DNA of 64,000 nt from Pirellulaceae bacterium (lineage in GTDB: Bacteria; Planctomycetota; Planctomycetia; Pirellulales; Pirellulaceae). The notes under the pieces were generated by a model. The model saw only the letters and a program-made list of their open reading frames with translations. It made no database searches and was not told where the DNA came from. The DNA lies in NCBI GenBank assembly GCA_026004795.1, contig BPJV01000009.1, positions 1 to 64,000 of the forward strand. The letters are read 5' to 3'. Positions 7,270 to 36,970 of this stretch are shown piece after piece; within the stretch, counting starts at the first letter, position 1; each line of letters opens with the position of its first letter. The position numbers and the translations under genes are program-made.

Positions 7270-7272
7270 CCG

Positions 7273-9878: not shown

Positions 9879-9965
9879 CGGTTGCCGGTAAAGAAACATG
9901 ATGTCGCGTGGCAGTAGGCAGAGTTGGGAGCTGGTTGATTAGCAAAACGTTACGGGGGTGGAGAG

Positions 9966-10904: not shown

Positions 10905-10905
10905 C

Positions 10906-12210: not shown

Positions 12211-12590
12211 ACCGCTGGGCCATGCTCTCCATGACGGGGGAGGTGGAGCAGGCAAGTCGGCAAGTGTCTTCCCCACGAGCCAATGGCGGGGGAGGTGAAG
12301 TGCAGAGGGGAGGAGAGGCAGCAAACGGATAGGTGCGCAAGAAAACCGCCGACAAATGAAGCGACACGACGATACGTCTCTGCCCTTGGCGAGGCCAGTG
12401 GGTAGGCCTGCCCATCGTCAGGGCTTCGTGGTGGCTACTGCCGTCCGATGCGGGGAGGCGAGCTGGTCGCGGATTCCCAACGGCAGTTCCCGGACCGACA
12501 CGCCGTTTTCAAATCCGCAGAAAGCGGTTACAGTCTCGTCTCGACAATGGCCTGGGGAAGGACAACGCGCGGGATGGGGAAAGCGGTGCC
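12211..12590. other. Intergenic, no supported gene
   Basis: These 380 bp separate the glycosyltransferase and the EamA-like permease. Short open frames exist on both strands, but none has a family signature or a good ribosome-binding site. A near-palindrome around 12400 (TGGGTAGGCCTGCCCA) is the only visible structure. Confidence 0.5.
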
Positions 12591-13541
12591 GTGGGGGGAG
12601 TGGAGAGCGAAACGTTTCCGTGGTATCTGGTTCTTCCCTTGTCGGCCAGCGTGTTGTTCGTATGCGGGCTGTTGTTTCTGAAAGCGGCCGGGGGACGAGG
12701 AGTACGTTCCTGGACCGTCACGTTTTGGGCCAATCAGTGGTCTGCCTTGTTGTTTTCGGGGCTGTGGGTTCTGGGTGGTGAGATTCCTGGTTGGACCCTG
12801 TGGTGGCAACCAGCGGCTATTGCTGGGCTGTTCATTCTCGGGCAAGTGTTGACCTTTGCTACGATCGAACATGGGGACGTGTCGGTAGCAACTCCGATTT
12901 TGGGTTCCAAGGTGATCTTGGTGGCCTGCCTACTGGCTCTGGTGGTGGGCCAGTCCTTACGGTCCGAAGAGTGGTGGGCGGTGGGACTTGCTGCCCTTGG
13001 AGTGGGATTGGTGCAGTGGATGCCGCGTCGTCGACAGTCCATTCACTCGGGAGATGCGGCTGCCATCATGCCCTCGGCGCACCGACCGGTGATCACTGTG
13101 GTGCTCGCGCTGTTGGCTTCGCTGGCATTCGCCACGTTCGATGTAGCAGTGCAGAGTTGGTCACCGCATTGGGGTACGGGGCGTCTGATTCCCATCTCTT
13201 TCCTGTTGGTCGCCATCCTTTCGTGCGGATTCTGGCCTGCCGTGCAAACGTGGTCGTCATGGCCGAGGATCGTCAAGGGACAATTCCTGGCCGGAACGTG
13301 GTTGATCGCTCTGCAGGGGTTGTGCATCGTGGCGACGTTATCGGTCTTTGGCGACGCGGCTAGAGTGAACGTGGTCTATTCGCTGCGAGGGATGTGGGGA
13401 GTACTCCTGGCGTGGTGGGTGGCACGACGGTGGGGAGGCAGTGAAGCTGATCTGGGGCGTTTCGTGATGTTCCTACGTCTTGCCGGGGCTGGCCTATTGA
13501 CCCTGGCCGTGGCCTTGGTGATTGTGGCGGCGACAGGTTGA
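12591..13541 (+). CDS. EamA/DMT-superfamily permease
   Basis: This 316-residue membrane protein has about ten helices arranged as two similar halves, the pattern of drug/metabolite transporters. Typical segments are FATIEHGDVSVATPILGSKV at the end of the first half and VNVVYSLRGMWGVLLAWW in the second. The start is uncertain: GTG at 12591 has a GGGGAAAG stretch before it, and GTG at 12600 is an alternative. It seems to be a single-gene unit after a 380-bp gap. The substrate cannot be inferred. Confidence 0.75.
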   Translation: MGGVESETFPWYLVLPLSASVLFVCGLLFLKAAGGRGVRSWTVTFWANQWSALLFSGLWVLGGEIPGWTLWWQPAAIAGLFILGQVLTFATIEHGDVSVATPILGSKVILVACLLALVVGQSLRSEEWWAVGLAALGVGLVQWMPRRRQSIHSGDAAAIMPSAHRPVITVVLALLASLAFATFDVAVQSWSPHWGTGRLIPISFLLVAILSCGFWPAVQTWSSWPRIVKGQFLAGTWLIALQGLCIVATLSVFGDAARVNVVYSLRGMWGVLLAWWVARRWGGSEADLGRFVMFLRLAGAGLLTLAVALVIVAATG

Positions 13542-13850
13542 TGCTGCTTCGACGGGCCAATTGCCGCAGAAGAGTCGGTACAATCTTAGCAAAGCAAGAA
13601 CTTCGGCGCGCCCGCGTACTCTCCGTAGCTTAGCGAACTATTGAACTCCATGGCTGATCGCACCAACTGCTCTTTCCACCTAAGTCCTTGTGTAAGCAAA
13701 ACGAACCGGGGGCAGACGAGCCAGGCTGCGGGCGACCACGCGGTGACCAGGGGGGCACCTGCTGCCGCAGAGGCCTGGCCGTTGGCACTGTCGGCGAGAT
13801 CGCGAGCAGGTGGTGATCGTCGCCGGGAGCACTGGTTCGTGGGAAACTCG

Positions 13851-22588: not shown

Positions 22589-23959
22589 ATGAAGTTTCGT
22601 CCGATTTGTTCCTTGCTGGGGTTGGCGGTGGCATTCGCCGTCAGTTCAGCATACGCCGACTGTGGCAACTGTGGTGGTTGCACCGATTGCGGTGCAGTGA
22701 GCAGTTCCCCATGTGGTGACTGTGGCGGGTGTGGTGATTGTGGTGTTGCCCAAGTCACTCGCAAGGTGTTGGTCCCCGAGTACATCACGGAGACCAAGAC
22801 GATCACCGTTACCGAGATGCAACCTCAAACGCAACAGCGGACGATCAAAGTGGTCCGCCAAGTGCCGCGCGAGGAGAAGCGCACACGCACCGTAACGAAG
22901 TGTGTTCCCCGCGAGGTGCAAAAGACCGAAACCTACACGGTGATGGTTCCTTCGAAACAGACCCAAGAATACACGGTCCGCGTCCCTGTCGTCTCGTATG
23001 TTGAGGAAACGTTTACCGTTCGCGTCCCCAAGATGGAAACCAAGGTCGTCGAGTACACGGTACGCGTGCCGGAGTACAAGGACGTGGAAGTCACTTACAA
23101 CGTGTGCGAACCGTACACCGAGGAAGTCACCCGTACCCGCACCGTTTGCCGTCGCGTTCCCGTGACCACGTCGCGCACGGTGACTCGGGATCTGGGGCAT
23201 TACGAGTGCCAGACGGTCGAAGTTCCGGTTGCTCCCTGTGCTTCTCATGGAGCTCGACGTTTGGGCCTGTTCCATCGCCACCATGGCTGCGGTGGATGTG
23301 GTGCATGCGATAGCTGCGCACCGGCATGCTCGACCGGTTGTGATAGTTGCTGCGCACCGGCTACCCGTACGGTTACGCGACGCGTGTGGGTACCGAACAT
23401 CGTTACCGAGCAGGTTCCGTGCACCACGTACAAGCTGGAGCGCGTGGAAGAGCCCTACACTTGCACGGTAACCAAGTACCGTACCGTGCCCAAGACGAAG
23501 ACCGTTCGTCAATGCTCCTACCGCACCGAGACCCGCACCCGTGAGGTTCAGGTGTGCACTTGGGTAGAAGAACAACGTACGCGGAAAGTGCCGAAGTGCG
23601 AGTACAAAGAAGAAACTCGAACTCGTGAAGTGTGCGTCATGGTTCCTGAAGAGCGAACTCGCGAGTACACCGTCGTCGAGTACGATCAAGTTCAAGAAGA
23701 ACAAGAATACACCGTAACGATTTGCGATCGCGTCGAAGAGGAGAAGACGATCGACGTGACGGTTTGTGTGCCGGTACAGGTGGAAAAAGAGGTTCAAGTT
23801 CGTCGCTGTGTGATGGTCGAAAAAGAAGTGACCGTTCCGGCGAGCAGCGGTTGTGGTGCTGCCAGCGGTTGTGGTGCCGGTGCAGCATGCGGAACGCCTT
23901 GCTGCAAGCGACGTGGCGGATTGTTCCACCACCTGCATGCCCGCCATTGCGGCTGCTAG
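22589..23959 (+). CDS. YTV-motif Cys-rich cell-wall protein
   Basis: This is a 456-residue secreted protein with a signal peptide (MKFRPICSLLGLAVAFAVSSAYA). Three Cys/Gly-rich clusters stand at the N-terminus (CGNCGGCTDCG), in the middle (HHGCGGCGACDSCAP) and at the C-terminus. Between them run two long blocks of imperfect repeats of about 20 residues, rich in Tyr-Thr-Val, Val-Pro, Lys, Arg and Glu (for example QEYTVRVPVVSYVEETFTVR). This is the planctomycete YTV-domain type, linked to the proteinaceous cell wall, where the cysteines probably cross-link. An excellent ribosome-binding site (GAGAGGAGAG) precedes the ATG. It stands alone and is followed by a strong hairpin. Confidence 0.9.
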   Translation: MKFRPICSLLGLAVAFAVSSAYADCGNCGGCTDCGAVSSSPCGDCGGCGDCGVAQVTRKVLVPEYITETKTITVTEMQPQTQQRTIKVVRQVPREEKRTRTVTKCVPREVQKTETYTVMVPSKQTQEYTVRVPVVSYVEETFTVRVPKMETKVVEYTVRVPEYKDVEVTYNVCEPYTEEVTRTRTVCRRVPVTTSRTVTRDLGHYECQTVEVPVAPCASHGARRLGLFHRHHGCGGCGACDSCAPACSTGCDSCCAPATRTVTRRVWVPNIVTEQVPCTTYKLERVEEPYTCTVTKYRTVPKTKTVRQCSYRTETRTREVQVCTWVEEQRTRKVPKCEYKEETRTREVCVMVPEERTREYTVVEYDQVQEEQEYTVTICDRVEEEKTIDVTVCVPVQVEKEVQVRRCVMVEKEVTVPASSGCGAASGCGAGAACGTPCCKRRGGLFHHLHARHCGC

Positions 23960-24354: not shown

Positions 24355-25182
24355 ATGGCTGATGACGCCGCGCCACGAAACGATTCTCCGGAGAATCAAC
24401 AATCGACGCCAATACCGCCATCATCTTCGGCTACCGTCGGCAATGCTCCGGGAGCCGCCCCGACGATTGCTGTGTCGACGGACGTGCAGGTGCGCGATTG
24501 GCTGCTGAGCCTTGCTATCGGCGGCGTGTGCAGCTGGCTGCTGTATTGCTTTCCCGTGTACACCTGGAGGGTTCCCGATCGGCTTGCCGATGTCAGCCCC
24601 ATGAGTCCACAAGAGCTGCAGGATGAGCTGGCGGAAGTGGAGCGAAGCAACCTGTGGAAAAACGCGACCGTGCGCTACCTGCTTGCCGGGCTGGGCTGGG
24701 GGGTAGCAGGGGTAATCCTGTTCCGCAGACAAGCCGCTCGCCGACTCACGGCGATCCTGTTGGCCCTAGCGGTGGGAGTCATCGGTGGCGCGGCTGCAGG
24801 GGCGATAGGACTGGCCGTGCGGCAGTTTATCAACTCAGGCGGACTGTTGCCCTTGTTGAACTTGGATGGTCGTTCGCTGGTGGCCGACGGGATGGTGCAA
24901 GCGTTGGTCACCGTGTTGGTGCTGTCGCCCATCATCCTGCTCGCCTCGATCGCCCCGCCAGCCGGACGCGTGCGGGCGCCCTGGGCTCCGATCATCGCCG
25001 GGTTGCTGGTTGGCTTCATTACTCCACTGTTCGTAGGCCTGGCCTTTTCACGGATAAATACCGGCCGGTATCCCCAAGACAGCATCATCTATATCGCCAT
25101 CTGGGATGCTTTGATCGTGATACTCACCGGTCTATTCATCGCTCGGGCCACTCCCCCAACCTCCGCGACCACGACCAAGTGA
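24355..25182 (+). CDS. Hypothetical polytopic membrane protein
   Basis: 275 residues. A Pro/Ser/Thr-rich cytoplasmic start (1-50) leads to about six hydrophobic helices. A short acidic helical loop around 80-100 (SPQELQDELAEVERSN) follows the first helix. I do not recognise a family. Its stop overlaps the start of the following FG-GAP lipoprotein by one base (TGATG), so the two are very likely translated together. It may be the membrane partner of that surface protein. Confidence 0.7.
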   Translation: MADDAAPRNDSPENQQSTPIPPSSSATVGNAPGAAPTIAVSTDVQVRDWLLSLAIGGVCSWLLYCFPVYTWRVPDRLADVSPMSPQELQDELAEVERSNLWKNATVRYLLAGLGWGVAGVILFRRQAARRLTAILLALAVGVIGGAAAGAIGLAVRQFINSGGLLPLLNLDGRSLVADGMVQALVTVLVLSPIILLASIAPPAGRVRAPWAPIIAGLLVGFITPLFVGLAFSRINTGRYPQDSIIYIAIWDALIVILTGLFIARATPPTSATTTK

Positions 25183-27035
25183 TGGCTCTGTCTCGTACGG
25201 GCTTTGCTTTGTGCATGAGATGCGGCACGACGCTTGTTCTAATCTTGCTGCTGCCAGGATGCCAACATCGGTCGGAGGTGTCAGACCATCGAGCGGCCAG
25301 CGCTACGCCGAAGATCGCCACTGACGAATCCGGTCAGAACGTCACGTTGCGTGACGGCCGGCACCACCAGTCAGGAGGTCCACCAGCAACTCAGGCAGTG
25401 CCGGAAGATCCCCAGACATCCAGTGTCCGCATTGCCGACTCCAGCCCCTTTGTGGACCAGGCCGAAGAGCTAGGCGTGCGGTTTCGATTTCATTGCGGAC
25501 GTGAAGCAGACGAGTACGCCATCATTGAGTCCCTGGGCGGCGGCGCAGCAATTCTCGACTTTGATGGGGATGGATGGGAAGATGCCTTCTTCCCGGGAGG
25601 TGGCAGCCTCGCTGAACAAAGAATAACGCCGAAGTCATCGGGCCTGTTCAAAAACGTTGCGGGGCAGCATTTTGTCGACATCGCTCCTCTGGCGAATGTA
25701 GCCTCCTCCCCACTCTACCTTCATGGGGCCTATGCCGCGGATGTTGACAACGATGGATTGCCCGACCTGGCAGTCAGCGGGTACGGCGGAGTCCAGCTTT
25801 ACCGGAACCAAGGAGACGGAACTTTTCTTCCCTTCCTCATGTTGCAAGGGCAGGTGACGCCGGATTGGTGCACCGGCTTGGCCTGGTTGGATAGCGATGC
25901 CGACGGGGATTTGGATCTTTATGTCACCAGGTATGTCGATTGGAGCTGGGACCATCATCCCCGATGCATTGCCACCGATGGTCGTTCGCCAGAGGTTTGC
26001 CCACCCCGCGAGTTTTCCCCACTTCCAGACTCGCTGTTCATCAATGACGGCGCGGGGCAGTTTACCGAGCTCGGTCCGGAGATTGGCTTGCGCAGCGACG
26101 GCAAAGGACTCGGAGTAGTGGCGTTCGATGCGAACGCCGATGGCCGCCTTGATCTGTACGTCGCCAACGATACGACGGACAACTTTTTGTATGTACAACA
26201 GCCTGACGGAACGTTCGCGGAATCTGCCGTGATTTCTGGTGTCGCCGGCGATGAGTTCGGGGTAAGCACGGGAAGTATGGGAATCGCGATTTTTGACGCC
26301 AACCTCGATCGATTGCCCGATCTCCTGGTGACCAACTTTGAACGCGAACTACCAGCGCTGTACCGCAATCAGGGCAATGGCTTGTTTCTCCACGCCAGCC
26401 GCTCGATGGGGTTGGCGGCGTTAGAAGCGATTTATGTGGGATTTGGTTGTGCACCCGTCGATTTCGACTTCGATGGCGACCCGGATGCAATACTAGCCAA
26501 CGGCCATGTATCTTATCACTCGATCCATGCACCATACCGGCAGACGTTGTTGTTGCTAGAAAACTTAGACGGCCAACGCTTCCAACGATTCCCTGCCTCA
26601 GGGTATTTTTCCAGACCTTTGACTGGCCGTGGAGTTGCGATCAGCGATGTAAATGGCGATGGCAGCGAGGACATTGTCGTCACCCACCAGGACGATCCGA
26701 TCGCCATTTTAGTCCGTACGCAACGTCCATCCGTGCCGTGGGCGTCCGTTCGTTTGATAGGGGTAGCCTCTAATCGAGACGCGATTGGATGTGTGGTCAC
26801 CACGCATTTCCCGGAAGAGATATCGAGAAGAAGCTGGGTCGTTGGCGGCGGTTCCTATCTTTCTAGCTCAAGTCGTTCCCTAACTGTTTACTGGCCACCT
26901 GGGGCGAACGGTCCGGCAACGATCGAGGTACAATGGCCTAGCGGACGCGGTGAGATTTTTGTGGTGAACGCGTTTGCAACCCACGTACTCATCGAAGGTA
27001 AGGGGGGAGCCACAGATCCGGTTCAGCGTGAGTGA
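25182..27035 (+). CDS. FG-GAP/ASPIC-UnbV (CRTAC1-like) lipoprotein
   Basis: 617 residues from ATG 25182, which overlaps the upstream stop (TGATG). A lipoprotein signal ends in LLPGC. Seven FG-GAP/VCBS repeats with calcium-loop motifs follow, among them DFDGDGWEDAFFP, DVDNDGLPDLAVSG, DSDADGDLDLYVT and DVNGDGSEDIVVTH. This fits a seven-bladed beta-propeller. A C-terminal ASPIC/UnbV-like part ends around GGGSYLSSSSRSLTVYWPPG. A Cys pair (PRC and EVC, around residues 260-275) also occurs in the paralogue at 32120-33901. Expected location is the outer face of a membrane. The ligand is unknown. A TPR lipoprotein gene follows. Confidence 0.88.
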   Translation: MALSRTGFALCMRCGTTLVLILLLPGCQHRSEVSDHRAASATPKIATDESGQNVTLRDGRHHQSGGPPATQAVPEDPQTSSVRIADSSPFVDQAEELGVRFRFHCGREADEYAIIESLGGGAAILDFDGDGWEDAFFPGGGSLAEQRITPKSSGLFKNVAGQHFVDIAPLANVASSPLYLHGAYAADVDNDGLPDLAVSGYGGVQLYRNQGDGTFLPFLMLQGQVTPDWCTGLAWLDSDADGDLDLYVTRYVDWSWDHHPRCIATDGRSPEVCPPREFSPLPDSLFINDGAGQFTELGPEIGLRSDGKGLGVVAFDANADGRLDLYVANDTTDNFLYVQQPDGTFAESAVISGVAGDEFGVSTGSMGIAIFDANLDRLPDLLVTNFERELPALYRNQGNGLFLHASRSMGLAALEAIYVGFGCAPVDFDFDGDPDAILANGHVSYHSIHAPYRQTLLLLENLDGQRFQRFPASGYFSRPLTGRGVAISDVNGDGSEDIVVTHQDDPIAILVRTQRPSVPWASVRLIGVASNRDAIGCVVTTHFPEEISRRSWVVGGGSYLSSSSRSLTVYWPPGANGPATIEVQWPSGRGEIFVVNAFATHVLIEGKGGATDPVQRE

Positions 27036-27165
27036 CCGTCGGAAAGTACCGCTGGGGAATGGCGGTTTTGGCCAGTGGTCAGCGTGCGGCTGCATAAGAA
27101 ATTGCCAATCCCAATATCGACCAGACCTGATCAAATTTGCTAGAGAGGCGAAGCAAGGTGTCGAA

Positions 27166-28536
27166 GTGAGTAATCAGTCACGAGTCCTGACACTGCTGAT
27201 GGCTTGCTGGCAATCGTATGTTTTCTGCGGATGCACTCGCCGGGAAGAAAATTCTCTAGAGCAAGGAAACGTTAGCGCCCGCTCCTCCACGTCGGCGACG
27301 TCGACAGCCGAAGTCGATGCGTCGCAACCGCCAGTGGACAATACCCGCCCTGGAGAACGCAGTCTCGCTTTCAGCCCTGAGCGGGACGAGCGCACTTCCG
27401 TCCACGCATCAGTCAGTCCTATGCCGTCGGCACGCCACCCAATTGACACGATCCCAGAGGGAGAAGACTACCATCGCGCTCTGGAAGCCATAGAACACGG
27501 CGATGTGCCAATCGCTCGCCAAATCGCCGCTCGATTGGCCGCTCACCCCACCTACTCTCCTTTGGCCCGCGCGATTCACGCCTACGAATCAGTGCACCAA
27601 GACGATTATCACAGCGCTTTGCAGATGGCCGAAGAGCTGTCCACGATCCCCGTCATGCGTCGCGAGGCCTATGTGATTGCCGGAGAGGTCTTTCAACGAA
27701 AGGGACAGTGGATGGCCGCCCTTGACGCGTTTCAACAAGCTTTGAAGGAGGATCCGAATTGTTTGCGAGCGCACCGATGGTTGGCGGTGCTCTATTACGA
27801 CACGGGAGCGATGCGCCTGGCCACCAACCACTTGCGTCGGGTAGCGGAATTGGATTCCCGCGATACGCGTTCCTTGATGCTTAGTGGCCGCATTTTTGCC
27901 GACTACGAACAGTTCTCAGATGCGATCGAAGATTATCAGAAAGTCCTCCAACGGGAGCTATCGATAGCAGACGAGATGGCCGTGCGTCTCGAATTGGCCG
28001 ACGCTCTCATCCATTTGCGGCGATTAGACGAAGCACAGGACGTGCTATCCCAGTGCCCAACGGATTTGCCTGCCACGATGGCGTTAAGAGCATCTTTAGC
28101 CGAGGCGATCGGCGATTTGGAAATGGCTCGTGACTTAGCAGCAGAGGCCTTCCGACGCTCGCCCGACAACATCAAAGCCCAACTCATTCTCGGTCGTGTC
28201 CTGGTGGCCATGGAAGCTTGGGAGAGTGCCATTGAAGTGCTCCGCCAAGCCGTCAATAGCCACCCTTATGACCATCGCTTTCGCACGCTCCTCGGTCGTT
28301 CTCTGATCAGCAGTGGCCGGGATGTGGAGGGAAAACAAGAAATCGCCAGAGCGACCGAACTAAAGGATCTGTTCCTCCAGTTTGCCGATCTCCACCAGGA
28401 AGCAATTCGCCATCCCCACGACGCGAATATCCGGAAAACACTAGCAGAGTACGCCCGCCGTTTAGGAAAGATGGAGCTTGCCGCCGCATGGGAGCGAGCT
28501 GCCGAAGCGCTCGCCGCCCCCTCTCCCTCCGATTGA
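27166..28536 (+). CDS. TPR lipoprotein
   Basis: The GTG at 27166 was chosen because AAGG lies 7 nt upstream and it gives a lipoprotein signal, with lipobox VFCGC at about residue 22. A longer frame from 26974 would have no signal peptide and would overlap the previous gene. The 456-residue product has a low-complexity Ser/Thr/Pro linker (25-95), then about ten TPR-like helical pairs, such as VFQRKGQWMAALDAFQQALK and AFRRSPDNIKAQLILGRVLV. It would serve as a surface scaffold. It follows the FG-GAP lipoprotein by 130 nt and resembles the TPR gene at 30865 in context. Confidence 0.85.
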   Translation: MSNQSRVLTLLMACWQSYVFCGCTRREENSLEQGNVSARSSTSATSTAEVDASQPPVDNTRPGERSLAFSPERDERTSVHASVSPMPSARHPIDTIPEGEDYHRALEAIEHGDVPIARQIAARLAAHPTYSPLARAIHAYESVHQDDYHSALQMAEELSTIPVMRREAYVIAGEVFQRKGQWMAALDAFQQALKEDPNCLRAHRWLAVLYYDTGAMRLATNHLRRVAELDSRDTRSLMLSGRIFADYEQFSDAIEDYQKVLQRELSIADEMAVRLELADALIHLRRLDEAQDVLSQCPTDLPATMALRASLAEAIGDLEMARDLAAEAFRRSPDNIKAQLILGRVLVAMEAWESAIEVLRQAVNSHPYDHRFRTLLGRSLISSGRDVEGKQEIARATELKDLFLQFADLHQEAIRHPHDANIRKTLAEYARRLGKMELAAAWERAAEALAAPSPSD

Positions 28537-28844
28537 GGCATTAAATTGGCGACAATCCTCCCAGAGTTTTTCCACATCCGTGCACATATAGGAAAAACCG
28601 ACGACAGCCCAGCAACGTCGCTTTCTCTTCCATTCCTGCGCGAAAATGACATTCCAGAGGGGCATCTCGTCCCCTAATCGCTGCGCTCGAGCATGCTCGA
28701 GAGAATTGACGGTAATGATTTTTGATTTTTTTCTGTGCCGCTTGTGGATCTCCGCCAAGGAATCGCATTCCTTAGCATAGAGAGCTTTCGTTTTGCTCAT
28801 CCCCCTCGGGTCTTGGTAGCCATCGCTAGTGGAGGTTATTCGCA
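28537..28844. other. Intergenic with 16-bp perfect palindrome
   Basis: 308 bp upstream of the DUF1559 gene. CTCGAGCATGCTCGAG (28686-28701) is a perfect palindrome, followed about 20 nt later by T-rich sequence. The TGGAGG before the next ATG is its ribosome-binding site. No coding signal is seen. Confidence 0.6.
28686..28701. repeat. 16-bp perfect palindrome
   Basis: CTCGAGCATGCTCGAG reads the same on both strands. It lies about 145 bp upstream of the DUF1559 start. It could be an operator, or only chance in GC-rich DNA. Confidence 0.6.
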
Positions 28845-29879
28845 ATGAGCAGTCATCGGAAAAGGGCGTTTACGCTCGTAGAGTTGTTGGTGGTCATCGC
28901 CATTATTGGCATCTTGGTCGGATTGCTTCTACCTGCCGTGCAGGCGGCCCGTGAAGCGGCGCGGCGCATGAGTTGCTCGAATAATTTAAAGCAGATTGGA
29001 TTGGCGATTCACAACTACGAGAGTGCGCACAAACAGTATCCAACGGGGACCATGGACCAAAACCCGGCCAATGTGCCTGGCAACCGGCCATGGCAGGCTG
29101 GAGATCATCGCAAGGGGACGGTGTTGGTGAAACTGTTGCCCATGCTAGAACAAACGGCTTTATACAATACGATTGATTTTCGATTTGACGTCGTCGCCCA
29201 GTTGAATGCCCAGGCGCCGTTCAATGATGGTCGGCCCGACATGCGACAGGTGCCGATGGGCATCTATCGGTGCCCCAGCGACGGCACCAGTTCCACGAGG
29301 CTGAGCCGCCAAGATCAGTTGTACAACTACTCCCTGAGTATCGGCAACCAAAACATGTCTGCTCAGGGGGGATGGTGCAATTTGCACCCGAATAACTCGT
29401 ACCAAACGAGATCCCAAGGGATCCTAGGAGGCAATTTATTTGGTAATGGCGGTGCCGGGCACGGCAATAGCAACACAGGGCGAAACATAAGTGGTGTCAT
29501 CAGCCGCTATTCTTACGGCGCGAAGTTTTCCGAATTGACCGACGGAACCTCCAATGTCATTGCCGGCGGGGAAATACTTCCCAGCTGCCATGATCACCAT
29601 CGTGGCGGTTGGTACAACGCGAACGGCCAGTGGACTTCGACGACCTCGCGCATTAATTTCAACACATGCGGAAAACAGGGGATTGCGGATAACCAGCAAA
29701 ACTGCAATGACTATCGCAATTGGATGACCTCGGGTGGTTTTAAATCGGACCACACGGGAGGCGCGCAGTTTGTCTTCGGCGATGGATCAATTCATTTCTT
29801 GTCTGAGAATATCGACTATTTGACGTACCAGCAACTCGGATCCAAGAATGATGGGGAGACGGTAAGCAACTGGGAATAA
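28845..29879 (+). CDS. DUF1559 prepilin-like protein
   Basis: A 344-residue planctomycete prepilin-like protein. The methylation/membrane segment [20 protein letters not shown] lies at residues 7-26. Next comes LLPAVQAAREAARRMSCSNN. The body has several Cys and Asn-rich loops, and the C-terminus carries the hallmark HTGGAQFVFGDGSIHFLSE. A good TGGAGG lies 12 nt before the ATG at 28845. It is followed, after a hairpin, by a small lipoprotein gene, a pairing often seen for this family in planctomycetes. Confidence 0.95.
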   Translation: MSSHRKRAFTLVELLVVIAIIGILVGLLLPAVQAAREAARRMSCSNNLKQIGLAIHNYESAHKQYPTGTMDQNPANVPGNRPWQAGDHRKGTVLVKLLPMLEQTALYNTIDFRFDVVAQLNAQAPFNDGRPDMRQVPMGIYRCPSDGTSSTRLSRQDQLYNYSLSIGNQNMSAQGGWCNLHPNNSYQTRSQGILGGNLFGNGGAGHGNSNTGRNISGVISRYSYGAKFSELTDGTSNVIAGGEILPSCHDHHRGGWYNANGQWTSTTSRINFNTCGKQGIADNQQNCNDYRNWMTSGGFKSDHTGGAQFVFGDGSIHFLSENIDYLTYQQLGSKNDGETVSNWE

Positions 29880-30082
29880 GAGCAATCCGTTCTCCCCAGA
29901 ATCGGCTTGTCGAAAGTGAGTGCCTTACGGCGATCTGCACCGGACGGTTTGTAGTGCCGGTTTCAAGACGTGGGGCTCGCTGTCTCGATGCCGTTATCGA
30001 GCTCAGCCTCGGATGAATTCCGCGTTACGAAAGGCGGTCGCCTGGGGCTTGAATTGTTCCGAATTTGACGTCCATCCGTTTG

Positions 30083-30114
30083 TGGTTGAGGTGGTGAATC
30101 TGCCGCCTCAACCA
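30083..30114 (+). terminator. 12-bp stem hairpin between DUF1559 and lipoprotein genes
   Basis: TGGTTGAGGTGG pairs with CCGCCTCAACCA (one G-T pair) around an 8-nt loop. Only a weak TTTT follows 6 nt later. It may be a partial terminator or a processing site that sets different expression of the two genes. Confidence 0.5.
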
Positions 30115-30143
30115 TAATGGTTTTACCAAGAGGTGTTCGGTAG

Positions 30144-30623
30144 ATGCGAATTGCAGGGTTAGTTTGCGCGCTTTTGTGTAATGCCATGTTGGTTGGTTGT
30201 GGGTCGGGTGGTCCGGATCCGGTACCCGTTTCAGGAAAGGTGCTTTATCAAGGCAAGCCGGTCGCCGACGCGACGGTGACCTTTTTGAGCACCTCCGGTG
30301 GGCGATCGGCCAGTGGTAAAACAGCAGCTGATGGAACGTTTACGCTCACAACGAACAAGACCGGCGACGGTGCCGTTCCGGGAGACTACATTGTCACCAT
30401 CAGCAAGGTAGCGGCGAAAGGAGCTTCCGCGGGACCAATTAATATCGAGAACGGTGAGTATGGCGAGGATTACGGCCGGATGATGGATGCGGTGGCGACG
30501 GGGGATATGTCGAAGTTTCTCAAGGACGAGTTGCCCGCAAAATACGGTGATCCTGCGCAGTCGGGTTTGCGACGAACGGTCACGGCAGAGGGGCCGAACG
30601 AGTTCGAGTTCAACTTGGAGTAG
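30144..30623 (+). CDS. Small carboxypeptidase-regulatory-like lipoprotein
   Basis: 159 residues. The lipoprotein signal MRIAGLVCALLCNAMLVGC is followed by an Ig-like, carboxypeptidase-regulatory-type domain (VPVSGKVLYQGKPVADATVT, then GKTAADGTFTLTT and PGDYIVTISK). Such small lipoproteins regularly follow DUF1559 genes in planctomycetes and may work with them; the function is unknown. It sits 30 nt after the hairpin behind the DUF1559 gene and is closed by a strong terminator. Confidence 0.88.
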   Translation: MRIAGLVCALLCNAMLVGCGSGGPDPVPVSGKVLYQGKPVADATVTFLSTSGGRSASGKTAADGTFTLTTNKTGDGAVPGDYIVTISKVAAKGASAGPINIENGEYGEDYGRMMDAVATGDMSKFLKDELPAKYGDPAQSGLRRTVTAEGPNEFEFNLE

Positions 30624-30643
30624 CCGGTTCGATAGGTGAGGTG

Positions 30644-30688
30644 AGCCGGCTGGAGCGACTCGCGGTGGCGAGCATCAGCCGGCTTTTT
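30644..30688 (+). terminator. Rho-independent terminator
   Basis: AGCCGGCT at both ends of the stem (30644-30651 and 30677-30684), with an inner CTCGC/GCGAG stem, directly followed by TTTT. It ends the DUF1559-lipoprotein unit. Confidence 0.85.
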
Positions 30689-30864
30689 CCGTTGGCGGAG
30701 GCCCCCCGCCGCGTGCCGCAGTGGCGATCGAATTCGTCGCTGGGGCATCGTGTCGATCCCAGGATACCTCCAGATGCACTACCCTAAATGCAGGTGGGGT
30801 CGCTAACTTGACGTATTGTAGGGTAATGGTCCGTAGGGCCGTACCGGGTTAATCGAACAAGGCG

Positions 30865-32118
30865 ATGGTGTCCGGGCGATCAATACGACTTCGATTTTGG
30901 CTTTTGGGGTGCCTGCTGTTGGGCTGCGGATGGGCTGCTTGGGCAGTCGATTTGCCCGGTCAATGGCGAGCCGTGCACGCGAGTCGCCTGCTGGATCAAC
31001 TGCGTGGTCGGGAGAGTCTGGAAGTCCTGCGGTATCAGCCCGGGCAGCGTCCGACTGAGGGAAAGGAAGCCGAGCTGGTGATCCGTGCTCTGTTGCAATT
31101 GAATCGTGCCCATGAAGTGCAGCAGGTGATGGGGGTCAGTCACGACAGCCCGCATACCTCAGTATCGCGATTGCTGTGCCTGGCTGCCCGCGCCCAGGTG
31201 GGGGATCGGTCTGCCTCCGAGCAATTATTGGCGGGGCAGGAAGAGAGCGTCGCGTTCCCCGAGGTCTATGAAGCTTTGGTGCGGTGTGCCGAGTACCACG
31301 CGGATTGGCATCGCCTGGGGGTGTTACTGGATCTGCTTGAACGCCAGCCTGCCCTGCAAACGATCGTCGCCTACCATCGGGGACGAAGCGCTGAACTGCA
31401 GGAGGATTTCCACGAGGCTGTGGAGCATTACCGGCAGGCCGTACAGAGGCATACGCATTTTGCCCGCGCTCGCTTCCGTATGGCGAAATGCTTGATGGAA
31501 CTCCAGCGATTCGAGGAGGCTGCCAAGGTCTTGGAGACACTTCTCGGCGGGCCATATCGATCGATCGCGAGCATCGAATCGGCGGTATGCTGGTGGGAGC
31601 TTGGTCAGCCACGCCGTGGTCTAGAGCTGGTGGAGGCCACGCTAACCGAACCCCTGGGTGAGGTCGTGCTGCGGTATATGGAACTTGATGAATTCTGCGA
31701 TCGAGATCGCGCCGCGCTGGTCGCTGCCCGCTGTTGGGACGCCATGAATGATCCGCAAAGGGTGGTCGATTTGTGCCGACGAGTTCTCGCGTCGAATCAT
31801 CGCAGTTTCGAGGCGCGCAGCCTATTGATCAAGAACTTGCAACACCAAGGACGCATCGAGGAAGCGCAGGAAATCGCTGCGGTTCACCAACAGATGCTCG
31901 AGAATCGTCAGCGGTGCGCCGAGCTTCGCAATGAGATCGAGGCGGATCCCGGCAATCCGCAATTGCGGCTGGAGTTGGCCCGGCGGTATTGGGAAACCGA
32001 ATCGGAGGCCGAGGGGCGACTGGCACTTCAGGAACTATTGGCACGGCACCCGGATTTTCAGCCCGCGCTGGAATTGCATCGTCAATGGCAGACCGCTAAC
32101 ACCAAGCTTCGCGACTAA
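30865..32118 (+). CDS. TPR protein, signal-anchored or lipoprotein
   Basis: 417 residues. The N-terminus (LRFWLLGCLLLGCGWAAWAV) is a membrane signal that contains a possible lipobox (LLLGC). The rest is a helical TPR array, for example ELQEDFHEAVEHYRQAVQRH, FRMAKCLMELQRFEEAAKVL and RSLLIKNLQHQGRIEEAQEI. ATG at 30865 has AAGG just upstream. It begins a three-gene set: the FG-GAP/ASPIC lipoprotein starts 1 nt after its stop, and the cytochrome gene overlaps that one. It is thus the second TPR-plus-ASPIC pair in 12 kb. No enzymatic motif is seen. Confidence 0.85.
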   Translation: MVSGRSIRLRFWLLGCLLLGCGWAAWAVDLPGQWRAVHASRLLDQLRGRESLEVLRYQPGQRPTEGKEAELVIRALLQLNRAHEVQQVMGVSHDSPHTSVSRLLCLAARAQVGDRSASEQLLAGQEESVAFPEVYEALVRCAEYHADWHRLGVLLDLLERQPALQTIVAYHRGRSAELQEDFHEAVEHYRQAVQRHTHFARARFRMAKCLMELQRFEEAAKVLETLLGGPYRSIASIESAVCWWELGQPRRGLELVEATLTEPLGEVVLRYMELDEFCDRDRAALVAARCWDAMNDPQRVVDLCRRVLASNHRSFEARSLLIKNLQHQGRIEEAQEIAAVHQQMLENRQRCAELRNEIEADPGNPQLRLELARRYWETESEAEGRLALQELLARHPDFQPALELHRQWQTANTKLRD

Positions 32119-32119
32119 C

Positions 32120-33901
32120 ATGCAATACGGCAGTCCGTTCTTACCGACGATGATGCTGGTCGTAGTGAGCATCGCTGTGGTGCCGGCATGTGACACGGCT
32201 GTCGAAAAGCGGGAACGTGCGCTCGCTGCGTCCTCCGCATCGGCGCATCGTGTTGAAACAGCCACTCGCACCGACGGCTTGCGTGACGGCAGAACAGCGT
32301 TGCGGTTTCAGTCGCGCCAGCCGAGCGAATTGAGACGATGCACCTTTGACAACGGCCGCAGTGGTGGGTTGAACACGATTTTTGAGATCGTTGGCGGAGG
32401 GGTTGCAGCGACGGATATCGATCTTGATGGGCAGATCGATCTGTTGTTCAGCTTGGGCGGTACCATCGATCCTCAGCGGCAGCAGGTCGAAGGGAATGGC
32501 TGGCATGTGCTGCGCAATCAGGGGCGTTGGCAGATGCGCGCCGCTTCGTCCGAGCTGTGCGCCCTCGCCCGCGGTCGCTACCTCCACGGTTTCGTAGTCG
32601 CGGATTTCGACCAGGACGGGTTCGACGATATCGCCGCTTACGGATGGGGTGGGCTATGGCTGTGGATCAACCAGGGTGACGGAACTTTCTCAGAGATGCC
32701 TGAGGCACTTCTCGGGCCGCAACCGCCATGGGTTACCGCTGCCGCCGCCGGAGATTTCGATGCCGATGGCAATTTGGATGTGTACCTGGGCAGCTACGTA
32801 GACTGGTCGTTCAACAACAACCCGGTGTGTCCGGACCGTCTCGGTCGCGATGATGTGTGTTCCCCCACGGCATTCCGTGGACATCCCAATCGAGTTTGGC
32901 TCAGTGACGGGCGGGGAGCATGGCGATGTGGCCAGTCGCTGTTCCGGCATCCGACCGATGGCAAGACGCTGGGAGTTGTCGTCGGTCGTTGGATCGAATC
33001 TCCCTGGCCACAGATCTACGTGGCCAACGATTTGGAGCCTAACTTTTTCATGGCCCGCGATGCGGAAACGTATGCTGATCGCGGGCTGCTATCAGGGTTG
33101 GCCGTGGACGACACCGGTGTTCCCAACGGTAGCATGGGAATCGCGGTAGCCGATTTTGATCATGACTTGCGCGAGGATTTGTTTGTCAGCAATTTCGAGC
33201 ATGAGATGATGGGGCTGTACCTGAATCGCGGTGGCGGCCTGTTCGACCATAGCAGCCGCACTGGTAAGTTGAACTTTGCAGAGAATCGGGCTGTGGGATT
33301 CGGCGTGCTGTCGGAAGATTGGGACGGCGATGGTGACTTCGACGTGTTGGTCGTATGCGGTCACGTTCACTATCATCCTGATTCGGGTAGTATGGAGCAG
33401 AGGCCGTTATTGCTGGTCAATGATGGGCAGGCGCGATTCCAGCGGGTTCAGCCGGCCGACGATTTTTTTCGCTTGCCACGCGTCGGTCGTGGGGCAGCCA
33501 GCGCGGATCTGGACGGCGATGGTGATCCGGACATCATTGCCACGCAGTTGCTGGGGCCGCCGCAGCTGATCGAGACGCACCGTCCCGGCGATACCTGTTG
33601 GTTGAATGTGCGGCCGGTGGGGACGCTCAGCCCGAGGACTCCTGTTGGCACACGCATCGAGCTCGACGTGGGACCGTTCCAACAGGTGAGGCAGTTGACC
33701 AGTGGTGGGAGTTACCTGTCCCATGCGGAATCGGTCGTGAGGTTTACCTGGCTGCCGCAACATCAGCGGTCGGATGCGTTGCCGGTGCGACTACGCGTCC
33801 ACTGGCCGAGTGGACGGGTTTCCAAGCATGAATTTGCATCGTGGAATCGGTTGGTCGTGGTCGTAGAACCAGGAGGCAGCACTCCATGGGGCGAAGAGTA
33901 A
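32120..33901 (+). CDS. FG-GAP/ASPIC-UnbV (CRTAC1-like) lipoprotein, paralogue
   Basis: 593 residues from ATG 32120, 1 nt after the TPR gene. The signal has a possible lipobox (VVPAC). Seven propeller repeats can be counted: DIDLDGQIDLLFSLG, DFDQDGFDDIAAYG, DFDADGNLDVYLGS, a degenerate one (SPWPQIYVANDL), DFDHDLREDLFVSN, DWDGDGDFDVLVVCG and DLDGDGDPDIIATQ. The ASPIC/UnbV-type C-terminus includes GTRIELDVGPFQQVRQLTSG. Blocks such as SYVDWSFNNNPVC and GSMGIAVADFD align with the protein at 25182-27035, so the two are paralogues. It overlaps the cytochrome gene by 16 bp. Confidence 0.88.
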   Translation: MQYGSPFLPTMMLVVVSIAVVPACDTAVEKRERALAASSASAHRVETATRTDGLRDGRTALRFQSRQPSELRRCTFDNGRSGGLNTIFEIVGGGVAATDIDLDGQIDLLFSLGGTIDPQRQQVEGNGWHVLRNQGRWQMRAASSELCALARGRYLHGFVVADFDQDGFDDIAAYGWGGLWLWINQGDGTFSEMPEALLGPQPPWVTAAAAGDFDADGNLDVYLGSYVDWSFNNNPVCPDRLGRDDVCSPTAFRGHPNRVWLSDGRGAWRCGQSLFRHPTDGKTLGVVVGRWIESPWPQIYVANDLEPNFFMARDAETYADRGLLSGLAVDDTGVPNGSMGIAVADFDHDLREDLFVSNFEHEMMGLYLNRGGGLFDHSSRTGKLNFAENRAVGFGVLSEDWDGDGDFDVLVVCGHVHYHPDSGSMEQRPLLLVNDGQARFQRVQPADDFFRLPRVGRGAASADLDGDGDPDIIATQLLGPPQLIETHRPGDTCWLNVRPVGTLSPRTPVGTRIELDVGPFQQVRQLTSGGSYLSHAESVVRFTWLPQHQRSDALPVRLRVHWPSGRVSKHEFASWNRLVVVVEPGGSTPWGEE

Positions 33902-36198
33902 TCGCTGTCCAGCCGCTCCTGCTCGATCGCCCGGGACGTCGTCGGGGCCGCCCAACAATGGTCTGGATGACTGCCATGGGCCAGGTCTTGGTCGTGGTTT
34001 GTCTGGCGGGGTGTGGACGATCTGGGACTCAGCTCGATCCTCCCCACACTTCGCAGTCGTTGGAAGCGATGGAAGTGGAATCGGAAGCCAACTCAACGGC
34101 GGCTGCGGGGGAACATTCCCCCAGGCCAATGCGGCTCGATCTCGGTCCCTTTCAGCTCGCGTTGCCTCAGAACCCCGGCTACGTTGGCTACGAATCTTGC
34201 CGAGCTTGTCATGCCGAACGCGTGGCCGTTTGCGAACGAACGCCGCATTTTCAGACTTGCCGCTACCCGCAACCGGAGCGGATGCCGGCGGCGTTCTTTG
34301 AGCCGAACGTCGTCGACCGCCGGTTGTGCTTGGAGGACGCGGGCGTGTGCTTCGAAATGCACGCCACCGATGGAGTATTCACCCAAACTGCGATCGCCCG
34401 ACGAGGGGCAATGGAAGAACGTGTCACTTCGACCATCGATTTGATCTACGGTGCGAAAGACACGTCCGATGAAGTCTACTTGTCCTGGCATCCGGACGGA
34501 ACCATGCGCGAGTTGCCAGTGGCTTGGGTGCACGCACGAGGTGCTTGGGGGGCTGCCGGATTCGATCGCCTGGGCCATGGTGATTTCGCTCGTGAGCTGA
34601 CCGTCCGGTGCTTCGAATGTCACAATACCTGGTTTCAACACGTTCCAGGAACTCTAGGGACATACTCCCGGGAGGGGTTTCTTCCCGGCGTGACCTGTGA
34701 ACGGTGTCATGGGCCTGCTAGAGAGCATGTCGAATATCACCAGCAGCATCCTGACGCCAGCGCTCGCTACATTGTCTATCCAGGCACTTTCTCACGTCAA
34801 CAATTGCTGGATCTTTGTTTGCAATGCCACTCGAACTCCATTCGCCACCGTGGCCCTCCCTTGAGTTATCGACCGGGGGAACCGGTAGAAAAGCACTATC
34901 GCTATGTGCATCCACGATTCGAGGAGGATGACCATGTGGCCGATCAGATCAGCGATTTGCGGGCCAGTGCATGTTTTCGGAACAGCGACCTGACCTGCAT
35001 CACCTGTCACGATCCGCATCGTACGGACCAGCCGGCAAGCGGTACTACCTACCGCGCGATCTGCCACCAGTGCCATCAGCATCCGGGATGTCAGAAATCG
35101 AGCGACATTCCAGCGGCGGTAAAAGATCGATGCACCGATTGCCACATGCGAAAATACGTGAAAATCAACGTGAACTTCGATTTGGCCAACGATAGCTATG
35201 TGCCACCCCTAGAGCGCACGCGGCATGAGATTCGGATCGATCCGATCGCTACCAAAGAAACGCTCCTCCGCTGGTATCGCAGCAACCTCGCCTCGGATCG
35301 CAATGCTTTCGGGGACGATACGCGTGAACAAGTAGGGAAGTTGGAGGCGGATTTACTCGCCTATTGGAGAGAAGAAGGCAGCGCACTGGCTCGACAGGGG
35401 CGCTACCTCGCCGCCATCGCCGCGATCCGCGAGGGATTGCGCATCAAGCCAGATGAACCTCAGCTGGTGCAGGATTTGTCTCACTACGTTTCTCAACGTC
35501 GCCACTGGGATGACCTATGGACAGCAGCGGAGCATGCCATGCGCGAAGATGCGCGAGACAAAGCAAGGCAACTCTTTGCGGCGATTATCGAGTTGTCACC
35601 TTATGACGCCTTGGCCCATGGACGGTTGGGAACGCTGCATTTCTGGCAGGGAGATCGCCAGCGAGCGATCGCATTGTGGCGGAAATGCAGTGACCTAAAC
35701 CCTGATGAACAGTATGGCGTGTCGATGCAAGCATGGGAGGCATGGACACGTGGAGATGCCCATCAGGCAGCCGCTCTTTATGAAGCGGCAGACGCTATCG
35801 AACCGTTCAACTCCCAACTGAATACCAAATGGGCGCGAGCCTTGATCGCCATCGGGCACATGGACCGAGCTTTCACGCGTTTGGAGGTTGCATTGCAAAG
35901 CAACCCTAGAAACATCGAGGCGTTGCGGATCATGAGTCTACTGGCGCTGCGTCAGGGGCGCCCCGATCGGGCTCAAGCTGCCGCGGAGGATGCGGTGCGA
36001 CTATCGCAGCAAACCAATATCGATGACCTGATGACACTGGCGGAAATCTATCGCCATCGCGGGATGGCTGGCCGGGCCCACATAACCGCCGAAACCGCAC
36101 TTCGACTGGCGACCGCCAGCGATCCGTCTGCAGCGAACGAAATCAAGACATGGTTACGAACGGAATTGCACCGCGACCACCAAGAAACAAGCCGGTGA
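33886..36198 (+). CDS. Heptaheme c-type cytochrome fused to TPR domain, lipoprotein
   Basis: 770 residues from ATG 33886, picked because AGGAGG lies 9 nt upstream; ATG 33958 is an alternative nearer the hydrophobic segment. The signal ends in VCLAGC. Seven CxxCH heme motifs occur in the first 440 residues: CRACH, CFECH, CERCH, CLQCH, CITCH, CHQCH and CTDCH. This is the cytochrome c554/c' (DmsE/NrfB-like) multiheme type. After residue about 500 come TPR helical repeats such as GSALARQGRYLAAIAAIREG and GRLGTLHFWQGDRQRAIALW. It would move electrons outside the cytoplasmic membrane while binding partners through the TPRs; donor and acceptor are unknown. It is the last gene of the TPR-ASPIC-cytochrome set. 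Confidence 0.9.
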   Translation: MGRRVIAVQPLLLDRPGRRRGRPTMVWMTAMGQVLVVVCLAGCGRSGTQLDPPHTSQSLEAMEVESEANSTAAAGEHSPRPMRLDLGPFQLALPQNPGYVGYESCRACHAERVAVCERTPHFQTCRYPQPERMPAAFFEPNVVDRRLCLEDAGVCFEMHATDGVFTQTAIARRGAMEERVTSTIDLIYGAKDTSDEVYLSWHPDGTMRELPVAWVHARGAWGAAGFDRLGHGDFARELTVRCFECHNTWFQHVPGTLGTYSREGFLPGVTCERCHGPAREHVEYHQQHPDASARYIVYPGTFSRQQLLDLCLQCHSNSIRHRGPPLSYRPGEPVEKHYRYVHPRFEEDDHVADQISDLRASACFRNSDLTCITCHDPHRTDQPASGTTYRAICHQCHQHPGCQKSSDIPAAVKDRCTDCHMRKYVKINVNFDLANDSYVPPLERTRHEIRIDPIATKETLLRWYRSNLASDRNAFGDDTREQVGKLEADLLAYWREEGSALARQGRYLAAIAAIREGLRIKPDEPQLVQDLSHYVSQRRHWDDLWTAAEHAMREDARDKARQLFAAIIELSPYDALAHGRLGTLHFWQGDRQRAIALWRKCSDLNPDEQYGVSMQAWEAWTRGDAHQAAALYEAADAIEPFNSQLNTKWARALIAIGHMDRAFTRLEVALQSNPRNIEALRIMSLLALRQGRPDRAQAAAEDAVRLSQQTNIDDLMTLAEIYRHRGMAGRAHITAETALRLATASDPSAANEIKTWLRTELHRDHQETSR

Positions 36199-36370: not shown

Positions 36371-36443
36371 GCCCCGTTCGTCTAGTGGCCCAGGACGCCG
36401 GGTTCTCAGTCCGGTAACAGGGGTTCGACTCCCCTACGGGGTA
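36371..36443 (+). tRNA. tRNA-Glu (CTC)
   Basis: A full cloverleaf can be folded. The acceptor arm is GCCCCGT with ACGGGGT (G1-U72), the D arm is in GTCTAGTGGCCCAGGAC, the anticodon loop is TTCTCAG with CTC, and the T arm is CAGGGGTTCGACTCCCC. Discriminator A; CCA is not encoded. Anticodon CTC reads GAG (Glu). Confidence 0.95.
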
Positions 36444-36970
36444 CTGGTGCACCTATTTGCAAAAGGCTGGGGCCATCCTCAGCCTTATTTTTATTGGGTT
36501 TTCGCGATTCGTGATGATTGCTGATGGGGCCGGAATTGTCCGTGATGGGGGGACATATGGGGGGACGAAAACTTGTTGCCCGCTCCCAGTGCTCATCGGT
36601 CTCGTGGTGGCTGCTGGTCAAAGGGCGATTCAGGGGCTAAGCACCGCTTGGTTGGACGTGCTGTTTGGTCCAATATGGCAGCGGAAGTCGCTCACTCGGC
36701 TGCGGTTGTGACGGGTCGTCCCCCTCCTGAAGATGTCGAATTCTGCCATGGCGTATCGAGGCATGAGGGGAGTCGACGGCAGTAGATCATGGACAGGTGG
36801 TCCATGATGTCTTTTCGGTTGCGCGGGGGCTTTGTCGGAAGCAGAGGCCGTCTCCATTTTCCGTGCTCCACTTCTTTGCAGAGGCGTGGTGAGGAGGCAT
36901 GATACAGGGGTGCGAGCGGCGATGAGCGGCTGGACTGTCCGTGGCGGTGTAGAGGATGAGGAAGAGTGGC
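36444..36970. other. Intergenic, no supported gene
   Basis: 527 bp between tRNA-Glu and the OleA-like gene. Short frames on both strands lack family signatures. No repeat of the tRNA 3' end is seen, so there is no sign of an integrated element. The end holds the GAGGAAGAG ribosome-binding site of the next gene. Confidence 0.5.

What the first reader, a model, noticed from the sequence alone, without database searches (positions are those of the whole stretch)
24355..36198. Duplicated ASPIC propeller-TPR surface module, one copy with a heptaheme cytochrome-TPR fusion
Two sets, about 6 kb apart, each pair a seven-bladed FG-GAP/ASPIC lipoprotein with a TPR lipoprotein. Set 1 adds a polytopic membrane protein (TGATG coupling). 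Set 2 adds a CxxCH-rich cytochrome with C-terminal TPRs (16-bp overlap). The two propellers share blocks (for example YVDWS and GSMGIA) and a Cys pair, so they are paralogues. The tight overlaps point to a stoichiometric complex at the cell surface with electron-transfer ability. I know of no named system of this make-up; the function is inference.
Basis: partly seen in the sequence, partly recalled or inferred. Interest (0 to 1): 0.75.

Follow-up and report, generated by a model that had tools for sequence, protein, structure and literature searches.

The report
Planctomycete propeller–TPR–pilin–cytochrome gene module
Eight neighbouring genes of a planctomycete belong to a recurring, so far unnamed set of cell-envelope genes (two propeller proteins, two helical-repeat proteins, a pilin-like protein, a small lipoprotein and sometimes a seven-heme electron carrier), which probably build one envelope complex whose job is still untested.

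Summary
The six genes are present with the stated couplings; the two propellers are paralogues (38% identity) and the cytochrome has seven CxxCH motifs plus C-terminal TPRs. In relatives the same components recur in changing order. L184 holds both propeller types, the cytochrome, TPR-A and the membrane protein on one 16-kb contig. A sister version (L197, L198, L200) runs on one strand as TPR–cytochrome–propeller–small membrane protein–DUF1559–propeller–TPR. Of 128 C554-cytochrome loci in 40 genomes, 15 lie within 6 kb of an ASPIC gene (1.4 expected). The cytochrome–propeller neighbourhood also occurs in Acidobacteriota, Bacteroidota and Gemmatimonadota. The cytochrome is optional: 9 of 41 examined propellers have one within 6 kb, and 5 of its 9 closest relatives show no ASPIC propeller in the held stretch. 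Most likely this is an envelope-anchored TPR/propeller scaffold with a pseudopilin, some versions carrying a heptaheme electron-transfer subunit. The module is well supported; surface location, stoichiometry and redox function are inference.

The parts
24355..25182 (+). P0006, 275-aa polytopic membrane protein, no Pfam or NCBIfam match; relatives beside PROP-A/TPR-A in L144 and beside TPR-A in L184
25182..27035 (+). P0001, propeller A: FG-GAP/ASPIC (CRTAC1-type) protein with lipobox; seven FG-GAP-type loops; overlaps the previous stop by one base (TGATG)
27166..28536 (+). P0002, TPR-A: TPR protein, start uncertain (GTG 27166 assumed), weak lipobox
28845..29879 (+).
30144..30623 (+). small lipoprotein-like protein with CarboxypepD_reg similarity below Pfam's cut-off, recurrent partner of the DUF1559 gene
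30865..32118 (+). P0005, TPR-B: TPR protein with N-terminal hydrophobic segment or lipobox
32120..33901 (+). P0003, propeller B: FG-GAP/ASPIC lipoprotein, paralogue of propeller A, one FG-GAP-type loop fewer
33886..36198 (+). P0004, heptaheme C554-type cytochrome (seven CxxCH, residues 105-420) with C-terminal TPR solenoid; lipobox; 16-bp overlap with propeller B, AGGAGG upstream of ATG 33886

Best explanation
The eight genes 24355-36198 are one cell-envelope module: two CRTAC1-type (FG-GAP/ASPIC) propeller lipoproteins, two membrane-anchored TPR solenoids, a DUF1559 pseudopilin, a small CarboxypepD_reg-like lipoprotein, a polytopic membrane protein and a heptaheme C554/OcwA-type cytochrome that carries its own TPR solenoid. 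Shown: gene content, overlaps, paralogy, recurrence of the same components in relatives, and the (predicted) folds of propeller A and of the cytochrome. Inferred: TPR solenoids and propellers form a scaffold on the periplasmic or outer face of the envelope, seated near a pseudopilin; the cytochrome docks to that scaffold through its TPRs and passes electrons between the periplasm and a partner or substrate held by the propellers. Versions without the cytochrome use the same scaffold for something else.
For: Co-location: 15 of 128 C554 loci within 6 kb of an ASPIC hit in 40 genomes of the order against 1.4 expected; 10 of the 14 C554 proteins with open frames of 900-1120 aa are beside ASPIC. 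DUF1559 lies within 3 kb of 23 of 36 propellers at 33 loci chosen by propeller similarity, or 26 of 41 when propeller places already held through the cytochrome search are added; by my arithmetic from the 68 matches in the own genome at most 4-5 expected. Genome-wide test: in 8 related genomes one match each to the window's DUF1559 passes E 1e-45, and in 7 of 8 it is the gene in the propeller-A locus (4 of the 8 genomes are one genus; the exception is G053). After removing 2 duplicate loci, 29 of 112 cytochromes have a propeller within 3 kb and 34 of 112 within 6 kb (these loci were chosen for a cytochrome). Recurrent sets: L184, L186, L187 (window type); L076, L079, L197, L198, L200 (sister type with cytochrome); L168, L182 (sister type without). 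Fusions: TPR+FG-GAP+ASPIC in one protein (L051, L060, L185) and C554+TPR in one gene whose frame overlaps an ASPIC gene by 4 bases (L047). Propeller A model: top PDB match murine CRTAC1 9etn, E 8.3e-28, TM 0.65/0.72. Cytochrome profile: best PDB sequence matches 6i5b and 4rkm (MccA), then 6r2q, 6qvm and cytochrome c554. L184 also holds a TPR + class-I cytochrome c protein inside the cluster. The own genome has a cytochrome c assembly gene (PF01578).
Against: The cytochrome is optional: within 6 kb of 3 of 36 propellers or 9 of 41 (a set that includes places fetched for a cytochrome; 26 further propeller places were not examined). Of the nine closest full-length relatives of P0004 (L184-L192), five (L188-L192) show no ASPIC propeller in the held stretch, though L188 and L189 have the DUF1559 pair and L188 ends at the cytochrome; L054 has none either. 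Gene order and strand vary. No MtrB-type porin in the own genome, so no known route across the outer membrane. No interface was predicted, since only single chains could be folded. Surface exposure was not tested.
Confidence: 0.5

Rival explanations
1. The core unit (propellers, TPRs, DUF1559 pseudopilin, small lipoprotein) is an adhesion, binding or secretion scaffold without redox function; the cytochrome is a lineage-specific passenger that uses the same membrane site or only the same promoter.
For: DUF1559 lies within 3 kb of 26 of 41 propellers, a cytochrome within 6 kb of 9 of 41; sets without a cytochrome in the held stretch exist (L144, L151, L152, L154, L168, L182). FG-GAP parts match GlcNAc-binding lectins by sequence, and lectins and integrins by fold.
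Against: Cytochromes of this family sit beside propellers in several phyla far above chance, in some cases overlapping or within tens of bases (L197, L198, L200, L207, L216, L217, L245, L255), and a second type of C554-TPR protein repeats the pairing (10 of 14).
Confidence: 0.3
2. The cytochrome is an enzyme (reductase or oxidase of a small substrate) and the propeller is its structural subunit, as in hydrazine synthase-like operons.
For: CRTAC1 genes beside HZS-like alpha and betagamma genes are in print (PMC12758564; passages and section 7); the profile matches the multiheme protein MccA; few non-CxxCH histidines are invariant in the 45-row set (H281, H378, H447), so not every heme has a fixed distal ligand there, and Cys363 is invariant.
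Against: No chain named hydrazine synthase is among the PDB sequence matches; in the 20-row heme-domain set five non-CxxCH His are invariant, so missing ligands may be alignment noise; the neighbouring window genes that I scanned give no substrate.
Confidence: 0.12
3. No joint function: expanded paralogous envelope families (13 ASPIC matches and 68 DUF1559 matches in this genome, some of the latter being two pieces of one gene) fall near each other by chance or through hitch-hiking.
For: Large families make neighbourhoods likelier; order is not fixed.
Against: Observed co-location is about tenfold over expectation, the DUF1559 at these loci is the genome's best match in 7 of 8 genomes, and fusions join the same domains.
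Confidence: 0.05

Closest known systems
CRTAC1 / ASPIC-UnbV propeller family (PF07593; murine CRTAC1, PDB 9etn)
   Same: Same domain order and, for propeller A, predicted fold.
   Different: Bacterial lipoproteins in pairs with TPR and pilin-like genes; no known ligand.
CRTAC1 gene beside HZS-like alpha and betagamma genes (Hagglund et al. 2025, PMC12758564)
   Same: A CRTAC1-type gene beside multiheme genes, some with C554 domains, in Planctomycetota and others (abstract, passages and section 7 seen).
   Different: No HZS-like match here; TPR-fused heptaheme protein, two propellers, DUF1559 and TPR partners are not described in the parts that I saw.
C554/OcwA/MtrA-type multiheme cytochromes (PDB 6i5b, 1bvb, 6r2q; names OcwA and MtrA recalled)
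   Same: Profile match to these chains, heme-motif blocks included.
   Different: Seven hemes and a C-terminal TPR solenoid; no NCBIfam equivalog over its cut-off.
MtrCAB porin-cytochrome conduits (recalled)
   Same: Multiheme protein of the cell envelope.
   Different: No MtrB_PioB match in the own genome; propeller and TPR partners instead.
DUF1559 / H-X9-DG prepilin-like proteins of planctomycetes (PF07596, TIGR04294)
   Same: The 28845-29879 protein matches both.
   Different: Here a subfamily tied to the propeller cluster.

Membership tests
CRTAC1/ASPIC-UnbV propellers | FG-GAP repeats followed by a C-terminal UnbV_ASPIC domain over Pfam's cut-off | tested here: met
   P0001 24.3 and P0003 31.4 bits against 23.4
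CRTAC1/ASPIC-UnbV propellers | CRTAC1 fold | tested here: met
   9etn top match, TM 0.65/0.72 (P0001 model only, P0003 not modelled)
C554-type multiheme cytochromes | Cytochrome_C554 domain over cut-off and several CxxCH | tested here: met
   21.0 bits against 20.8, marginal; 7 CxxCH; PDB profile match to 1bvb
Porin-cytochrome (MtrCAB-type) conduit | MtrB-type outer-membrane barrel in the genome | tested here: not met
   0 matches to PF11854 in the own genome, 96.8% complete
Hydrazine synthase-like complex | Sequence similarity to HZS alpha or betagamma subunits | tested here: not met
   no chain of that name among the PDB sequence matches; HZS subunits were not used as queries
Hydrazine synthase-like complex | Hydrazine-forming activity | not testable with these tools
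   needs biochemistry
Type IV pilin / pseudopilin | Prepilin N-terminal cleavage/methylation domain | tested here: met
   28845-29879: TIGR02532 26.9 bits against 16.3 and TIGR04294 31 against 19
Type IV pilin / pseudopilin | Polymerisation into a filament | not testable with these tools
   needs microscopy
Extracellular electron-transfer system | Surface location and reduction or oxidation of an external partner | not testable with these tools
   only lipobox/TM signals seen

The most novel reading that the evidence does not exclude
A so far undescribed envelope machine of planctomycetes, in which a pseudopilin base, TPR solenoids and a hetero-pair of CRTAC1-type propellers carry a heptaheme cytochrome and form a porin-independent route for electrons to or from the cell exterior; the cytochrome–propeller core spread across several phyla.
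Probability: 0.22. Interest if true: 0.85.

Novelty: new variant of a known kind. Interest (0 to 1): 0.6.

Why it matters
DUF1559 proteins are a very large protein family of planctomycetes (68 paralogues in Planctopirus limnophila, PMC10632474, passage) and ASPIC propellers are numerous in some of them (up to 15 matches in one of 40 genomes); I know of no assigned job for either. Showing that they come as a set with TPR solenoids, and in some lineages with a heptaheme cytochrome, gives them a testable shared context: remove one, look for the others. It also adds to the HZS-like operons a further case of a CRTAC1-type propeller tied to a multiheme protein.

Tried and rejected
Two independent copies of one module: rejected, because both sets occur as one run or one cluster in L153 and L184. 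Recent tandem duplication of the propellers: rejected by the tree. DUF1559 pair as an unrelated insertion: rejected. MtrCAB-like conduit: no MtrB match. HZS membership: no sequence match. Whether a heme lacks a distal ligand was left open: coordinates of the model are not given out, and the counts differ between alignments. My first TPR profile search tagged nothing and was rerun with filters off; my longest-ORF gene picker lost genes on GC-rich contigs (L205, L227, L234, L242, L249) and was rerun with hits given priority; even so it misses the propeller places on L145 and L147. The fold search of the cytochrome shows only TPR/helical-repeat matches among the 50 rows listed, so it says nothing on the heme domain. 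Predictions of a complex were not possible (single chains only). Promoter-like sites are not above shuffles (4 against 4.7), terminator-like sites 17 against 11.2, sd 3.1; not used.

Limits of the counts: one search used 135 of 136 ASPIC rows (one below the cut-off dropped) and the 134 C554 rows, merged to 128 loci; contig ends were ignored, so the observed count is if anything low. One search counted 114 cytochromes at 117 loci; three loci were dropped because the script saw no cytochrome frame with five or more CxxCH (L080, L194, L205), and two of the 114 are the same loci fetched twice (L208 = L065, L213 = L056), hence 112. The 33 propeller-selected loci leave out propeller places already held through the cytochrome search, which lowers their cytochrome count; one search adds them back, which raises it. 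Of 67 distinct propeller places outside the own genome were held and recognised, 26 not examined. Two of the 33 loci (L155, L157) had also been hit by the cytochrome search. In L197, L198 and L200 only one TPR gene each of L198 (first) and L197 (last) was scanned by Pfam.
Full report
WHAT IS THERE. The window lies at G000:C9:1-64000 of a 5.59-Mb genome in 17 contigs with 13 ASPIC matches. On the + strand between 24355 and 36198 stand eight genes: membrane protein P0006, propeller A (P0001), TPR-A (P0002), a DUF1559 pilin-like protein, a small lipoprotein-like protein, TPR-B (P0005), propeller B (P0003) and a heptaheme C554-TPR cytochrome (P0004). Both propellers carry FG-GAP repeats and ASPIC over Pfam's cut-offs, share 38% identity and have seven (A) or six (B) FG-GAP-type loops. 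The cytochrome has seven CxxCH, as has each of the 45 aligned cytochromes.

FOLDS. AlphaFold2 gives P0004 a mean pLDDT of 87.2 (pTM 0.84), with the heme-motif part up to about residue 450 and a helical solenoid to the end, and P0001 83.3 (pTM 0.83). The closest solved structure to propeller A is murine CRTAC1, 9etn, E 8.3e-28, TM 0.65/0.72. For the cytochrome the fold search lists only TPR and other helical-repeat proteins in the 50 rows shown; a profile of the heme domain finds 6i5b, MccA, 6r2q, 6qvm and cytochrome c554 by sequence.

ONE MODULE, NOT TWO. The window and 160 fetched stretches were labelled with one script. L144 (same family) has membrane protein, propeller A and TPR-A in the window's order, the longest frames of the first two overlapping by one base, and beside them a DUF1559 gene 58% identical to the window's and a small lipoprotein. 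L153 has PROP-A, TPR-A, TPR-B, PROP-B in a row. L184, the closest cytochrome relative (45% in its best segment; 43% in the alignment), has a partial propeller closer to B, a propeller closer to A, the cytochrome, TPR-A and the membrane protein on one contig of 16 kb, plus a TPR-cytochrome c protein. L186 and L187 have cytochrome, DUF1559 pair, TPRs and propeller A; L185 has cytochrome, DUF1559 pair and a TPR-propeller fusion; L188 and L189 have cytochrome and DUF1559 pair without an ASPIC propeller in the held stretch. The tree of 64 propellers puts A with L184 and L144 (100/97) and B with L172 of the same genus (100/99), the five together at 96/93: an old duplication kept in place. The partial propeller of L184 was too short for the tree.

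THE DUF1559 GENE BELONGS. The window's DUF1559 protein scores at most 140 bits against other genes of its own genome. In eight related genomes searched whole, one match each passes E 1e-45; in seven (G164, G144, G147, G128, G151, G188, G171) it is the gene in the propeller-A locus, in G053 it lies on another contig than the propeller-A locus, although that locus (L152) also holds a DUF1559 gene at 281 bits by blastp. Four of the eight genomes are of one genus.

A SISTER VERSION. L197, L198 and L200 carry on one strand a 434-aa membrane-anchored protein (TPR by Pfam in L198), heptaheme cytochrome, propeller, a small membrane protein, DUF1559, second propeller and a further membrane-anchored protein (TPR by Pfam in L197), in L198 and L200 with a 4-base overlap of cytochrome and propeller frames; L079 and L076 carry the same kinds of gene in another order, L168 and L182 the set without cytochrome. 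Their two propellers fall into two separate clades, different from the window's pair. The same make-up has thus arisen or been kept with different propeller pairs. The small membrane proteins of L198 and L079 have no Pfam match, that of L182 matches CarboxypepD_reg weakly; their equivalence to the window's small lipoprotein is uncertain.

COUNTS. In 40 genomes of the order, 15 of 128 C554 loci lie within 6 kb of an ASPIC match against 1.4 expected; of 14 C554 proteins with open frames of 900-1120 aa, 10 do. At least one of these (G017, two C554 matches in one frame) resembles the HZS-like betagamma genes described in PMC12758564 and may be one of them; I did not test it. At 33 propeller-selected loci DUF1559 lies within 3 kb of 23 of 36 propellers and a cytochrome within 6 kb of 3 of 36; with propeller places held through the cytochrome search added, 26 of 41 and 9 of 41. 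At cytochrome-selected loci, 29 of 112 distinct cytochromes have a propeller within 3 kb and 34 of 112 within 6 kb; among the 76 distinct named ones 21 do. These include Acidobacteriota (L207, L212), Bacteroidota (L216, L217, L245, L255) and Gemmatimonadota (L219, L239). Single proteins that join TPR, FG-GAP and ASPIC (L051, L060, L185) or C554 and TPR beside an overlapping ASPIC gene (L047) tie the same parts together.

AGAINST. Of the nine closest full-length relatives of P0004 (L184-L192), five show no ASPIC propeller in the held stretch; L191 and L192 are held for about 9.7 kb on both sides, L188 and L190 for less. L054 has none within 7.8 kb. The cytochrome is a minority partner seen from the propeller side. 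Order and strand vary. No MtrB-type barrel is found. Nothing here shows surface location or redox activity; a cytochrome c assembly gene is present.

HOW IT PROBABLY WORKS. By inference from the folds: TPR solenoids and propellers are protein-binding scaffolds; anchored by lipid or TM segments next to a pseudopilin they could form a platform in the periplasm or at the outer membrane. Where present, the cytochrome's own TPR solenoid would dock to it and its seven hemes would carry electrons to or from what the platform holds. Earlier work on Gemmata put beta-propeller and alpha-solenoid proteins into pore-bearing membranes (PMC5287468, passages); the one propeller whose annotation I saw is called Na-Ca exchanger/integrin-beta4, not ASPIC, and that paper finds electron-transport proteins in other fractions, so this is only a lead.

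WHAT IS KNOWN. Searches for ASPIC/UnbV, CRTAC1, FG-GAP, DUF1559, heptaheme and multiheme cytochromes, pilin and propeller/TPR terms with planctomycetes (listings) showed no named system of this make-up in the library held (open-licence PubMed Central only). The nearest report is the CRTAC1 gene beside HZS-like genes (PMC12758564). DUF1559 is described as the largest paralogue group of Planctopirus limnophila, 68 members, two of them essential (PMC10632474, passage).

VERDICT. The gene set is well supported; the mechanism is a reasoned guess.

Noticed in passing
L078 (G144:C7), 4977-15365: A DUF1559–propeller–heptaheme cytochrome triplet stands twice in tandem with the same DUF1559 and propeller lengths, scores and starts; a very recent duplication or an assembly artefact.
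   Followed up: no
L047 (G000:C3), 4568-9393: 988-aa five-CxxCH C554-TPR protein overlapping an ASPIC propeller gene by four bases; the same pairing at similar spacing recurs in other genomes of the order.
   Followed up: partly
L050 (G000:C3:397000-416000): Second heptaheme cytochrome of this genome, flanked by two propellers and a TPR gene, with short ORFs nearby that look like transposon genes and a DUF1559/small lipoprotein pair.
   Followed up: partly
L184, 7452-9452 (-): Protein with TPR and class-I cytochrome c domains inside the propeller–cytochrome cluster.
   Followed up: partly
P0004 residue 363 (window 34972-34974): A cysteine outside the CxxCH motifs is invariant in the 45 aligned cytochromes; role unknown.
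   Followed up: no
22589-23959: 456-aa Cys-rich protein with many YTV-like repeats just upstream of the module; no Pfam match.
   Followed up: no
L158, L164, L172, L184, L186, L187, L189: A second FG-GAP protein of about 530-550 aa, without ASPIC where scanned (L158, L184, L186, L187), often joins the cluster; none was labelled beside the window's module.
   Followed up: partly
36371-36444: tRNA-Glu (CTC) directly downstream of the module, followed by a terminator-like hairpin.
   Followed up: no
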